A stretch of 64,000 nt of DNA. Origin: Sphingomonas echinoides ATCC 14820. Lineage in GTDB: Bacteria; Pseudomonadota; Alphaproteobacteria; Sphingomonadales; Sphingomonadaceae. The stretch lies in contig NZ_JH584235.1 of NCBI RefSeq assembly GCF_000241465.1, positions 2,376,527 through 2,440,526 on the forward strand. The letters run 5' to 3'. The notes beneath the pieces are model-generated. The model did no database searches, was not told the DNA's origin, and worked only from the letters and a program-made list of their open reading frames with translations. Both the position numbers and the translations under genes were made by a program. Positions within the stretch are counted from its first letter, which is position 1. Each line of letters opens with the position of its first letter. Positions 15,041 to 51,837 of the stretch are shown in pieces.

Positions 15041-15153
15041 CGCGCCGACAGTGCGCGAGCCGGAACGAAAGGGCAACCTTCAACCGCCCCTTGCGGCACA
15101 TACCGCCCGATGGAGGTTGTGCCGCGCCGCACCCATGCGCTACGCCCCCGCTT

Positions 15154-16773
15154 ATGACCGACGTTTTCCGCACCGCCGCCCTCGATTCCAAAGCCTGGCC
15201 GTATGAGGAAGCGCGCAAACTGCTGAAACGCTATCCCGAGGGCAAGCCGGGTGGCGCACCGATCATCTTCGAGACCGGCTATGGCCCGTCGGGTCTGCCG
15301 CATATCGGCACGTTCAACGAAGTGCTGCGCACGACGATGGTGCGTCACGCCTTCCAGACGCTGACCGATGCGCCGACGCGGTTGATCGAGTTCAGCGACG
15401 ATATGGATGGCCTGCGCAAGGTCCCCGACAACGTGCCCAACCAGGCGATGCTGACCGAAAACCTCGGCAAGCCGCTCAGCCGCATTCCCGATCCGTTCGA
15501 GAAGTTCGAAAGCTTCGCCGCCCACAACAACGCCATGCTGCGCGACTTCCTCGATCGCTTCGGCTTCGAATACGAATTCATCTCCTCCGCCTCGCAATAT
15601 GAAGCGGGCGTGTTTGACGATGCGCTGAAGGGCGTGCTGCGCCACTATCAGGCGATCATGGGCGTGATGCTGCCGACGCTGCGCAAGGAGCGCGCCGCGA
15701 CCTATTCGCCGATCCTGCCGATCAGCCCCAAGACCGGGATCGTGCTGCAAGTCCCGGTCGAGGTCGTGAATGTCGAAGAGGGCACGATCCGCTTCACCGA
15801 CAGCGATGGCGAAGTGCTGGTGCAATCGGTGCTGGGGGGGCAGGCCAAGCTGCAATGGAAGGTCGATTGGGCGATGCGCTGGGTCGCGCTTGGCGTCGAT
15901 TATGAGATGTACGGCAAGGACCTGATCGACAGCGGCGTGCAGTCGGGCAAGATCGCGCGCGTGCTCGGCGGTCGCCCGCCCGAGGGGCTGATCTACGAGA
16001 TGTTCCTCGACGAAAAGGGCGAGAAGATCTCCAAGTCCAAGGGCAATGGCCTGACGCTGGAGCAGTGGCTCGATTACGGCACGCAGGAAAGCCTGGCCTT
16101 CTTCGCCTATCGCGAGCCGAAAAAGGCCAAGCAGCTGCACATCGGCGTCATTCCGCGCGCGGTGGACGACTATTTCCAGTTCCGCGAAAGTTGGTGGAAT
16201 CAGCCTGTCGAGCAAAAATTGGGAAATCCAGTCCATCACATTCACGCTGGGGATGTGCCTGCCGGACAACCGCCTGTGACCTTCGGTTTGCTTTTGAATT
16301 TGGTCGGTGTGCTTGGCCCGCATGCTACCCGACAGCAGGTACTAAATTACCTAGGAAAGTACTTTGGAGAATCTTTGGAAGAAGCCATTTCTAGAGATAG
16401 GCTCGTCGTTTCAAAGGGTATGTCTTACGTAGAAGACGAGTTAACAAGACTCGTTGATCATGCGCTCGCCTATAACCGCGATTACGTCGCGCCGACGCTC
16501 CAGCGCCGCAAGCCGGAGGGGATCGAGGTGGCCGCGCTCGAACGGCTCGATCGCGAGCTCGCCGCCGCGCCCGCCGATGCCTCGGCGGTCGATTTGCAGA
16601 ACATCGTCTATGCGATCGGCAATGAAGGCGGGTTCGATCCGCTGCGGGCGTGGTTCGGGGCGCTGTACGAAACGCTGCTCGGCTCCGCCCAAGGCCCGCG
16701 CATGGGCAGCTTCATCGCGCTGTACGGCATCGACAACACCCGCACGCTGATCGCGGAAGCGCTGGCGGACTGA
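15154..16773 (+). CDS. lysS: Class I lysyl-tRNA synthetase
   Basis: Charges tRNA-Lys. The 539-residue enzyme is of the class I type found in archaea and many alphaproteobacteria, not the usual bacterial class II. The HIGH equivalent is PHIGT (residues 50-53) and the KMSKS equivalent is KISKS (291-295). A SGGxxHxGT-like GPSGLPHIGT loop is also visible. Residues about 350-436 are encoded by a stretch of roughly 48% GC with codons rare elsewhere in this window (TTA, CTA, AGA, AGG), against 67-73% in flanking lines. The frame stays open, so the enzyme is probably functional. The shikimate dehydrogenase-like gene follows after 14 bases. Confidence 0.93.
   Translation: MTDVFRTAALDSKAWPYEEARKLLKRYPEGKPGGAPIIFETGYGPSGLPHIGTFNEVLRTTMVRHAFQTLTDAPTRLIEFSDDMDGLRKVPDNVPNQAMLTENLGKPLSRIPDPFEKFESFAAHNNAMLRDFLDRFGFEYEFISSASQYEAGVFDDALKGVLRHYQAIMGVMLPTLRKERAATYSPILPISPKTGIVLQVPVEVVNVEEGTIRFTDSDGEVLVQSVLGGQAKLQWKVDWAMRWVALGVDYEMYGKDLIDSGVQSGKIARVLGGRPPEGLIYEMFLDEKGEKISKSKGNGLTLEQWLDYGTQESLAFFAYREPKKAKQLHIGVIPRAVDDYFQFRESWWNQPVEQKLGNPVHHIHAGDVPAGQPPVTFGLLLNLVGVLGPHATRQQVLNYLGKYFGESLEEAISRDRLVVSKGMSYVEDELTRLVDHALAYNRDYVAPTLQRRKPEGIEVAALERLDRELAAAPADASAVDLQNIVYAIGNEGGFDPLRAWFGALYETLLGSAQGPRMGSFIALYGIDNTRTLIAEALAD
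16201..16460 (+). other. Low-GC, atypical-codon segment inside lysS
   Basis: By hand count 125 of 260 bases are G or C (48%), and only 25 of 60 between 16321 and 16380. The line at 15961 gives 40 of 60 and the line at 16501 gives 44 of 60. Codons include CTA GGA, TCT AGA GAT AGG and TTA ACA AGA. It covers part of the helical anticodon-binding region and keeps the frame. Confidence 0.8.
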
Positions 16774-50129: not shown

Positions 50130-50216
50130 GCGGCCGTGGCGGAACTGGTAGACGCGCAACGTTGAGGTCGTTGTGGGCGAAAGCCCGTGGAAGTTCGAGT
50201 CTTCTCGGCCGCACCA
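50130..50216 (+). tRNA. tRNA-Leu (anticodon GAG)
   Basis: An 87-base cloverleaf with a long variable arm typical of leucine tRNA. The acceptor stem pairs GCGGCCG (50130-50136) with CGGCCGC (50206-50212), then A and an encoded CCA. The anticodon stem AACG/CGTT frames TT-GAG-GT. The T arm contains GTTCGAGTC. It reads CUC and CUU codons. Lower-GC sequence begins right after its 3' end, the usual place for integrated elements. Confidence 0.96.
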
Positions 50217-50296
50217 CTTTTTAAAGTGCCGAATTTTTTATAGTCCCTGCAGCGGACTGTTTGGAAGGCGGCAGGCAAGCAATCATGATGTAGCGC

Positions 50297-50332
50297 TTGC
50301 AATGTTGGAAAATGTTGCTGATATGTTCCAAC
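50297..50332 (+). promoter_or_regulatory. Possible promoter with inverted repeat before the cassette
   Basis: TTGCAA (50297-50302) and GATATG (50320-50325) are separated by 17 bases. An inverted repeat GTTGGAA (50304-50310) and TTCCAAC (50326-50332) overlaps this span and could bind a repressor. It lies 23 bases before the chosen ATG at 50355. Confidence 0.35.
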
Positions 50333-50354
50333 CTCTCCAACGGGGGTGGCACAA

Positions 50355-51371
50355 ATGGAAATATCAACAGCTGAGCGGCGACGAGCATTTTCCTGCTGGT
50401 TAAGAACCGGCCGATTGCCCTCTGTGCGCAACGCGAACGGCGTAGAATTCAAATTCAATCCGTATCATGATCGGCAGAACGGGAGGTTCACCTTCCGCAC
50501 GGGCGGAACCGCCGGAGGAAACCCTTTAGCCCCCCCTGGCGGCCAACAAACAGCGCAGGCTACCTCAGAAGCGGAACGGGAACCGGCGCGAGGCAGTAAC
50601 AGTCGAGCGTTCGAAATCCCAATGACGTTGGAACAGTCGTTTCCAGGACTACAAAATGCTCCTGGAGGCGCGCTGATTGCGGTCGCGGATACTCTGTTCG
50701 ATTTTACCGGACCTGCGAATGAATCGATGGCGCAGTTTCTTCAGGATCAGTCCAGGCACCTCATATCCCAAATCAAGGCGATCGATCCAAACTGGCATTA
50801 CGATGAGATTGGTCCGACCGACGCATTTGGAATGCCGATCGTGACGGTCCAAGGCCTAAGCGCAAAGGTCGACGATCTGCGCTTCCAACGCGCCGCAGCC
50901 TTTGCGCGGGTGAAGGGTGACTATGGTCCACTCCAGGTCGAAACACTGCGTTTTGTGCAGCAACGCGCTGACGGCGCGTATAGCGATGGTCTTGCGTTGC
51001 TCAAGGCTGGCCGCCTGACCCCGAGACTCTCGGACAGAGAGGCAGTAGGAAACTACGTCGATCGGGAAGTTCGGCGAGATCTTCGCGTGCGCTATAGTCA
51101 ATTGGGCATCGTCTCAAGCGGGCAGGGGCCTGTGCGGGTAAACCGGAGGGAAGACGACACTTCCGGCAATGACCTCACCTATCGGCGACCAGACGCGCGC
51201 GTTAAAGACGTTGCGTTCGACGTTACTTTGACGCGCAAGACGCTAAGAACGCCCCAAGTCCGCGGCTTTTTCAACACTGACTTTCGACCGAGCCGAGTCG
51301 TGATCATCCGTCCTCGTCAGCTCGGTATCGATCATACCTATGTTCTTTCCCGCCCGGAGACGAAACGATGA
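50355..51371 (+). CDS. Candidate toxin/effector with N-terminal delivery-like tag
   Basis: 338 residues, no family I can name. Three parts are visible. First, an N-terminal module with FSCWLRTGRLP and KFNPYHDRQNGRFTF, which recalls leaders seen on other sphingomonad and phage-linked proteins. Second, a Gly/Pro/Gln-rich linker (about residues 55-90). Third, a longer body ending in a compact domain, PDARVKDVAFDVTLTRK (Asp280, Asp289, Lys295), then QVRGFFNTDFRPSRVVIIRP. The Asp...Asp-x-Thr...Lys spacing is loosely like a PD-(D/E)xK nuclease core. GC is about 56% in two lines counted, below neighbours. ATG chosen for an upstream GGGGG; a GTG three codons earlier is possible. Confidence 0.55.
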   Translation: MEISTAERRRAFSCWLRTGRLPSVRNANGVEFKFNPYHDRQNGRFTFRTGGTAGGNPLAPPGGQQTAQATSEAEREPARGSNSRAFEIPMTLEQSFPGLQNAPGGALIAVADTLFDFTGPANESMAQFLQDQSRHLISQIKAIDPNWHYDEIGPTDAFGMPIVTVQGLSAKVDDLRFQRAAAFARVKGDYGPLQVETLRFVQQRADGAYSDGLALLKAGRLTPRLSDREAVGNYVDREVRRDLRVRYSQLGIVSSGQGPVRVNRREDDTSGNDLTYRRPDARVKDVAFDVTLTRKTLRTPQVRGFFNTDFRPSRVVIIRPRQLGIDHTYVLSRPETKR

Positions 51372-51760
51372 GCCCTAACCCCTACTTCAATCCAAAGCCG
51401 TACATCCCGGCGTCACTCAGCGAAATTTACGATCAGCTTGGATCAATGATATTACATGCCCCCACTTTTCTCGACCGAACGCTCGTTTTCCCCGATCGGA
51501 ACATCGACAGCGAGTTCGACACGCTGGTCAAAGGGTTTGACATCGTCCGGAAAAAGCTGGGGGAAGAGCGCTACGCTGCGCTGATCGATCTCGCGGCGCG
51601 CGCGAAGGCGCTGTTCGCCGCCGATCAGGACGATACCAACGGCAAGACCGACCAGGGGCGTGCGCTACTCTTCGAGATCGAGGATATTTTACGTGATGCG
51701 CGGCGCAGCCGCGTCAAGGCCAAACTTCCCGATGATGAAGGTGAGATAACTGGCGACTGA
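51368..51760 (+). CDS. Candidate immunity partner of the upstream gene
   Basis: 130-residue small soluble protein with no recognised family. It is mostly helical by eye (SEIYDQLGSMILHAP, YAALIDLAARAKALF, LLFEIEDILRDARRS) with an acidic tail (DDEGEITGD). Its ATG overlaps the upstream stop (ATGA), so the two are made together. A large effector followed at once by a small, coupled, acidic partner is the usual layout of toxin-immunity pairs. Function is inferred from layout only. Confidence 0.5.
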   Translation: MSPNPYFNPKPYIPASLSEIYDQLGSMILHAPTFLDRTLVFPDRNIDSEFDTLVKGFDIVRKKLGEERYAALIDLAARAKALFAADQDDTNGKTDQGRALLFEIEDILRDARRSRVKAKLPDDEGEITGD

Positions 51761-51837
51761 GGTAAATTCTGCGGTGATCGAGGTGCCCCTTTTAATGAGA
51801 CGAGGCATCGGCCCCCTAAGCTTGCAAGACCCTGCCC

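What the first reader, a model, noticed from the sequence alone, without database searches (positions are those of the whole stretch)
16201..16460. Low-GC mosaic segment inside class I lysS
About 260 bases fall to 48% GC by hand count while flanks are 67-73%, and rare codons (TTA, CTA, AGA, AGG) cluster here. The edges are abrupt and the frame is kept. Options are recombination with a distant donor, local recoding to escape an element that targets this site, or an embedded regulatory signal.
Basis: seen in the sequence. Interest (0 to 1): 0.7.

Follow-up and report, generated by a model that had tools for sequence, protein, structure and literature searches.

The report
Foreign patch in lysS swap hotspot
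A 272-base piece of an essential enzyme gene in a Sphingomonas-like bacterium was replaced by foreign, AT-rich DNA without breaking the gene, and the same stretch of this gene seems to have been swapped repeatedly in related bacteria.

Summary
The low-GC stretch in class I lysS holds the lowest-GC windows of the 64 kb. Against seven close relatives its edges are 16187 and 16458. Eight relatives, 94-96% identical in protein elsewhere, carry a GC-rich version, 18 codons shorter in seven and 14 in one. Silent codon changes are in excess only inside the tract (59-66% against 22-26%, p 1e-6 to 3e-8; four native pairs show no significant excess). So it is imported DNA replaced in frame, not protein selection alone. 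No donor was found.

The new part is recurrence. In 269 full-length lysS genes the five deepest AT-rich dips all lie at codons 337-463: window, L240, L205, L096, L098. Among gene pairs at least 90% identical elsewhere, drops over 0.25 appear only in the windows 344-441 and 393-490, in none of seven windows over 1-392. One GC-rich segment type is shared across lineages against the rest of the gene. Best reading: homeologous recombination between conserved blocks. No second copy, RNA match or phage source was found. Part of the sample was chosen for odd segments; what drives the hotspot is unknown.

The parts
15151..16773 (+). class I lysyl-tRNA synthetase gene (lysS); codon numbers in this report count from 15151; the likely start ATG is 15154
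   Evidence: PF01921 E 1.6e-133; NCBIfam NF001968 lysine--tRNA ligase 782 bits, cut-off 648; solved structure 1irx
16187..16458 (+). imported AT-rich tract (272 bases against 218 in seven of eight close relatives), about codons 346-436
   Evidence: mismatch positions against seven relatives, identity profiles, GC3 scan
16366..16437 (+). region of the 18 extra codons relative to seven of eight close relatives, in a predicted loop between two helices (approximate limits)
   Evidence: alignment with eight relatives; model pLDDT below 50 at residues 416-426
16150..16186 (+). conserved left block (IPRAVDDYFQFR), native; the left exchange point lies at its end
16459..16500 (+). conserved right block (ALAYNRDYVAPTL), native; the right exchange point lies at its start

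Best explanation
Shown: bases 16187-16458 of lysS are foreign to this lineage and stand in frame in place of the shorter, GC-rich segment that its close relatives carry. Inferred: DNA of a diverged, AT-richer lysS, probably from an unsampled member of the same bacterial family, entered the cell and replaced the native stretch by homeologous recombination (double crossover or gene conversion) whose ends fell at the two conserved blocks IPRAVDDY and ALAYNRD. The tract encodes helices and a tolerant loop at the start of the C-terminal helical domain, a piece that can be exchanged without breaking the enzyme. The same piece has been replaced repeatedly in other sphingomonad lineages, so it acts as an exchange hotspot within lysS.
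For: Edges at the same bases against seven relatives, and silent-codon excess inside only: 59-66% against 22-26%, p 1.1e-6 to 3.3e-8 over eight relatives; four native-native pairs show 27-30% against 19-30%, p 0.08 to 0.53. Outside the tract the window gene groups with its eight relatives (support 99.7). GC3 0.46 against 0.85. Conserved residues are kept but with codons rare at that position (mean surprisal 0.92 against 0.24). Recurrence: the five deepest GC3 dips of 269 genes all lie at codons 337-463. In 195 genes, 10 rows show a nucleotide-identity drop to the nearest neighbour beyond 0.2; 9 begin at codons 376-391 and one at 421; because neighbours report each other the 10 rows stand for about 7 lineages, and of these only L205 had been fetched for an oddity. 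Pairs at least 90% identical elsewhere: 13 drops over 0.25 in codons 344-441, 4 in the overlapping 393-490, 0 in seven windows over 1-392. Exchange of a known segment type: ten SLPG-type genes are one clade by segment (support 94) but rejected by the rest (AU p 0.0004; group named after seeing the segments). L256 and L332 have different nearest neighbours for segment and rest.
Against: No donor found: best nucleotide identity of the segment to any of 245 other lysS genes is 0.60. Protein searches of 385 class, 397 family, 295 genus and 45 genus-g363 genomes gave, in the rows printed, at most 73% over the first 62 residues, and that match is its own relative G031. The segment tree does not reject the window segment within its own clade (p 0.41); the KAVADY type (p 0.38) and the smaller SLPGVGD group (p 0.71) are not rejected as clades by the rest of the gene. 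For L096 against L153 the silent excess is only p 0.058, and one native pair, L071 against L059, shows p 0.012. The extra loop has no counterpart in the other alleles. Per Touzain et al. RecA works poorly at such divergence, so the route is inferred.
Confidence: 0.78

Rival explanations
1. The exchanges are driven by diversifying selection: something (a toxin, phage protein or inhibitor acting on this domain of LysRS, or change in the partner tRNA) favours alien versions of codons 341-445, so swaps at this place are kept while swaps elsewhere are lost. This adds a driver to the best explanation rather than replacing it.
For: Five AT-rich alien segments and several GC-rich types at one place; loops of 58, 60 and 62 codons against 42-46 in 151 of 154 measured.
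Against: No linked gene of that kind was seen: ten neighbours of lysS in the window and four other loci are ordinary families or unmatched, and ORF lists of two loci were read by eye only. Tolerance of the loop plus conserved flanks could give the same pattern. Other genes were sampled too thinly for a rate.
Confidence: 0.2
2. Recoding or co-conversion linked to an element that targets this site in lysS (homing endonuclease, integrase attachment site, RNA-guided element), leaving a recoded scar after loss of the element.
For: Recurrent replacement with similar boundaries in different lineages.
Against: No second copy in the genome. For the window segment no phage or viral-contig source and one ordinary plasmid lysS. 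No integrase among ten flank proteins tested, one of them without any match. Phage head genes by lysS in 1 of 336 sequences held, many of which are too short to show them. Amino acids also change and length grows, which escape alone would not need.
Confidence: 0.05
3. An embedded regulatory signal or structured RNA requires AT-rich sequence here.
For: Low GC inside a GC-rich gene.
Against: No Rfam match up to E = 1, folding z +0.31 and +1.45, no promoter or terminator pattern, GC-rich in eight close relatives, unrelated loop sequences in L096 and L098.
Confidence: 0.02
4. The segment diverged in place, by fast protein evolution or a local burst of mutation.
For: The window segment is not excluded from its own clade at protein level (p 0.41).
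Against: Silent-codon excess; no general acceleration: in 446 pairs at least 90% identical elsewhere the segment's median identity is 0.96 and 0.90 in the two identity bands; sharp edges and an 18-codon in-frame expansion.
Confidence: 0.06
5. Assembly artefact.
For: Only one genome of the species was available.
Against: Open frame through about 91 foreign codons with lysS-specific conserved residues; 6-contig genome, completeness 100, contamination 0.09; parallel cases in other assemblies.
Confidence: 0.02

Closest known systems
Intragenic homeologous or dimorphic variable segments of bacterial genomes (Touzain et al. 2010, PMC2884548; outline and sections 11 and 15 read)
   Same: Short divergent segment inside a conserved gene, silent changes enriched, explained there by segment replacement or homeologous recombination; polymorphic loci suggested there as recombination hotspots
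   Different: That work compares strains within species; here the same sub-gene piece is replaced in several genera, with AT-rich donors not found and in-frame length change
Mosaic outcomes of natural transformation (PMC13344027; abstract and outline seen)
   Same: Short clustered patches of donor DNA that do not follow simple homology rules
   Different: Laboratory Bacillus subtilis; the abstract names no recurrent site
Lateral transfer of lysyl-tRNA synthetase genes (PMC1475646; passages seen)
   Same: Class I lysS moves between lineages, including into alphaproteobacteria
   Different: Gene-level gains and losses in the passages seen; the word recombination does not occur in its main text

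Membership tests
class I lysyl-tRNA synthetase | match to the curated family above cut-off | tested here: met
   NF001968 782 bits against 648; PF01921
class I lysyl-tRNA synthetase | fold of solved class I LysRS | tested here: met
   model pLDDT 84.6; 1irx_A TM 0.74 (query length), E 2.4e-22
class I lysyl-tRNA synthetase | aminoacylation activity of the mosaic enzyme | not testable with these tools
   needs an assay
recombinant (mosaic) gene segment | sharp edges against close relatives | tested here: met
   16187 and 16458 against seven relatives
recombinant (mosaic) gene segment | silent-site excess inside only | tested here: met
   59-66% against 22-26%; four native pairs of the same clade not significant
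recombinant (mosaic) gene segment | rest of gene follows the species group | tested here: met
   clade of nine with support 99.7
recombinant (mosaic) gene segment | segment tree places it elsewhere | tested here: inconclusive
   AU p 0.41, few columns
recombinant (mosaic) gene segment | donor identified | tested here: not met
   best nucleotide identity 0.60
scar of a site-targeting mobile element | element, remnant or second copy present | tested here: inconclusive
   no second copy, no phage or viral source, no integrase among ten flank proteins; flanks were not searched exhaustively
embedded regulatory RNA | known family or unusual folding | tested here: not met

The most novel reading that the evidence does not exclude
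Codons 341-445 of sphingomonad lysS form a swap module of an essential synthetase that is kept diverse by an unknown antagonist or partner, fed by a pool of AT-rich lysS alleles carried by an unsampled lineage or element; the window carries one of the least blended cases found.
Probability: 0.15. Interest if true: 0.75.

Novelty: new member of a known kind. Interest (0 to 1): 0.42.

Why it matters
Housekeeping synthetase genes are often assumed to be inherited whole within a family and are used in species trees. A defined 100-codon piece of lysS that is exchanged repeatedly would mislead such trees, and gives a natural set of chimaeric LysRS enzymes for asking which parts of the tRNA-binding domain are interchangeable. 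If the hotspot is driven, it points to an unknown pressure on LysRS in sphingomonads.

Tried and rejected
Regulatory signal: not supported. Repeats: no direct repeats; two imperfect inverted pairs of 18-19 bases, of no evident meaning. Second copy in the genome: none. Phage, plasmid or viral source: none for the window segment except one ordinary plasmid lysS of Sphingomonas parapaucimobilis at 49%. The segment of L098 gave the same plasmid hit and one viral contig with an ordinary lysS; the whole L098 gene gave a distant Halogranum virus synthetase at 26%. A family search with the L098 segment and a genus search with the L240 segment showed no donor in the rows printed, which are only the best 150 or so. 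An early idea that the AT-rich segments of window, L096 and L098 form one donor clade was neither shown nor clearly rejected (AU p 0.07, long-branch warnings). Genus g363 looked closest by score (67-70% over 63 residues) but is not among the six nearest by DNA. PHROGs and NCBIfam gave nothing for the inserted loop.

Control on other genes: searches mislabelled lysS genes and are discarded; one search stopped with an error after its first two loci. In one search, z below -6.5 was seen in 1 of 351 other genes and 4 of 185 recognised lysS, below -5.4 in 5 and 7, below -5 in 12 and 13. The strongest other gene falls only from 0.97 to 0.84; one short dip (L080, 0.47 against 0.82 over 40 codons) is deep. 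One of the four lysS (L101, near the start of its open frame) is probably an upstream-extension artefact, and at least one of the 351 (L114) is probably an unrecognised lysS. This control is suggestive, not decisive.

Sampling bias: L205 was fetched because its gene was long, and L240 and the KAVADY genes because their segments matched poorly, so their number is no rate. L096 and L098 came in on whole-gene similarity: 2 AT-rich cases among the 109 loci and 8 other than the window, duplicates included. L096 and G965 are the same sequence and counted once. In one search two motif distances of 32 and one of 89 are probably misreadings by the search expression. The frameshifted L105 was dropped from the full-length counts.

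Full report
The observation. GC of 16201-16460 is 48.1% in a window of mean 65.3%, and the stretch contains the lowest 130-base and 260-base windows of the 64 kb. The left flank is 61.7%, lower than stated; the right is 67.6%. It lies inside a class I lysyl-tRNA synthetase gene, the only copy found in a 4.26 Mb, 6-contig genome. Codon numbers here count from 15151. Third-position GC is 0.46 inside and 0.85 outside. The codons AGA, AGG, CTA, TTA and ATA occur 6 times in 92 codons inside and not in 448 outside.

Comparison with relatives. Eight distinct lysS genes (L002, L003, L031, L032, L185, L191, L194, L311) are 94-96% identical in protein outside the segment but only 58-66% inside. Their segments are 80 codons (seven) or 84 (one) against 98 in the window, with GC3 0.78-0.89. 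A further relative, L105, is cut short by a frameshift and was left out. Dense mismatches against seven relatives begin at 16187 and end at 16458 in every case, with only scattered ones beyond. The tract is thus 272 bases where seven relatives have 218. Among codons for the same amino acid, the codon differs in 59-66% inside and 22-26% outside (Fisher p 1.1e-6 to 3.3e-8, eight relatives). Four native-native pairs of this clade give 27-30% against 19-30%, p 0.08 to 0.53. Outside the segment the nine genes form one clade (support 99.7). Protein selection alone cannot give the silent excess, so the tract is foreign DNA.

Donor. None was found. The best nucleotide identity of the segment to 245 other lysS genes is 0.60. 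Protein searches with the segment covered 385 genomes of the class (264 with a match), 397 of the family (388), 295 of the genus (291) and 45 of genus g363 (42). In the rows printed the best identity over the first 62 residues is 73%, to the window's own relative G031. Plasmid, phage and viral-contig searches gave only one ordinary plasmid lysS. The first 60 residues look like this bacterial family, so an AT-richer unsampled sphingomonad is the likeliest source; that is inference. The segment tree is too weak to place it (AU p 0.41).

Recurrence. Of 182 distinct genes, the distance between two motifs flanking the loop could be measured in 154: it was 42-46 codons in 151 and 60, 58 and 62 in the window, L096 and L098. 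L096 and L098 are 88% and 94% identical in protein to their nearest neighbours outside the segment, 54% and 49% inside. In ten-codon bins their identity falls at 341-350 and recovers at 441-450, like the window's; in L098 it stays uneven to codon 470. In 246 and then 269 full-length genes the five deepest GC3 dips all lie at codons 337-463: L240 (z -12.0), window (-11.2), L205 (-8.5), L096 (-7.0), L098 (-5.5); the next is -5.0. The changed part of L205 runs further, to about codon 500. The neighbouring helicase-like gene (PF13307) in 77 loci reaches only -4.8. A scan of nucleotide identity to the nearest neighbour in 195 genes gave ten rows with a drop beyond 0.2; nine began at codons 376-391 and one at 421; neighbours report each other, so these are about seven lineages. 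Among pairs at least 90% identical elsewhere, drops over 0.25 number 13 in codons 344-441 and 4 in 393-490, and none in seven windows over 1-392. For codons 341-438 there are also 13, tracing to the window gene (8), L098 (3) and L331 (2). The segment is not simply fast: its median identity in such pairs is 0.96 and 0.90 in the two identity bands.

Silent excess in the other cases. It is clear for L240 (p 7e-3 to 7e-5, three neighbours), L205 (3e-3 and 3e-5), L098 (5e-4 to 2e-6, three) and L096 against L174 (2e-4), but weak for L096 against L153 (0.058). One native pair, L071 against L059, also shows p 0.012.

GC-rich exchanges. Distinct segment types occur on different backgrounds. L332 is nearest to L303 outside (0.87) but to L331 inside (0.83); L256 is nearest to L188 outside (0.86) but to L259 inside (0.87). 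Ten genes with the SLPG type form one clade by segment (support 94), which the rest of the gene rejects (AU p 0.0004; the group was named after seeing the segments). Two smaller groupings were not rejected (p 0.38 and 0.71).

Bias. L205 was fetched because its gene was long, and L240 and the genes around L325 because their segments matched poorly, so the counts are not rates. L096, L098, L094 and L110 were not chosen by segment. The comparison with 351 other flank genes points the same way but is thin.

What the piece is. The AlphaFold2 model (mean pLDDT 84.6, pTM 0.81) matches 1irx with TM 0.74. The tract (residues 346-436) covers the end of helix 333-348, helices 353-358, 360-364, 378-388, 394-404 and 409-414, a poorly predicted loop with the extra codons, and the first half of helix 424-449. 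By recalled knowledge of class I LysRS and GluRS this is the start of the C-terminal anticodon-binding helical domain; that was not tested here.

Surroundings. Next to lysS lie ordinary genes: in the window a helicase-like gene, a shikimate dehydrogenase-like gene and nhaA; nhaA and a helicase-like gene also beside lysS in L240, nhaA in L205. No integrase was among ten flank proteins tested; one had no match. Phage head genes beside lysS were seen in 1 of 336 sequences held, many of them too short to show such genes.

Mechanism. Most likely diverged lysS DNA recombined with the native gene with ends at the conserved blocks on either side. Shown: replacement, edges, foreign codon use, recurrence at one place. 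Inferred: route of entry, donor, and that conserved flanks plus a tolerant module make the hotspot. A driver by selection remains possible. A regulatory signal, a mobile element and in-place divergence are disfavoured.

Literature. Touzain et al. [quoted passage not shown] they tend to exclude selection because silent changes are enriched too, as here. PMC13344027 (abstract) shows short mosaic patches after transformation. PMC1475646 (passages) treats lysS transfer between lineages. Searches for Sphingomonas with lysyl-tRNA synthetase and recombination (2 listed), for synthetases with intragenic recombination or mosaic gene (15 of 44 listed), for class I LysRS terms (15 of 39 and 10 of 10 listed) and for synthetase hotspot terms (2 listed) showed no title or abstract start describing this hotspot; the library is open-licence only.

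Verdict. A real, imported tract; a new member of a known kind. The recurrence at one sub-gene site in an essential synthetase is the part worth following.

Noticed in passing
L209 3163-5921: A viral-collection contig carries an ordinary lysS directly followed by terminase small and large subunit, portal and tail-like genes, possibly a gene transfer agent or prophage cluster; no other of 336 sequences held shows this, many being too short.
   Followed up: partly
L105 and G938:C48:10405-11966: lysS of Sphingomonas sp. Ant H11 (L105) is frameshifted within the same segment, at about codon 398; G938, which may be the same genome, shows the gene in two pieces at that point. It may be a sequencing error.
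   Followed up: no
window 50130-51800: A tRNA-Leu (GAG) is followed by an AT-richer stretch with two open frames without Pfam match, possibly a small tRNA-linked island.
   Followed up: no
NZ_CP155751.1 130170-130421: Sphingomonas parapaucimobilis carries a lysS on a 425 kb replicon listed as a plasmid.
   Followed up: no
L094, L327, L328: A further GC-rich segment type (YSLLLNLIGVLGAQANEDAV) differs from near relatives over codons of about 371-470, reaching further towards the 3' end than the window tract.
   Followed up: partly
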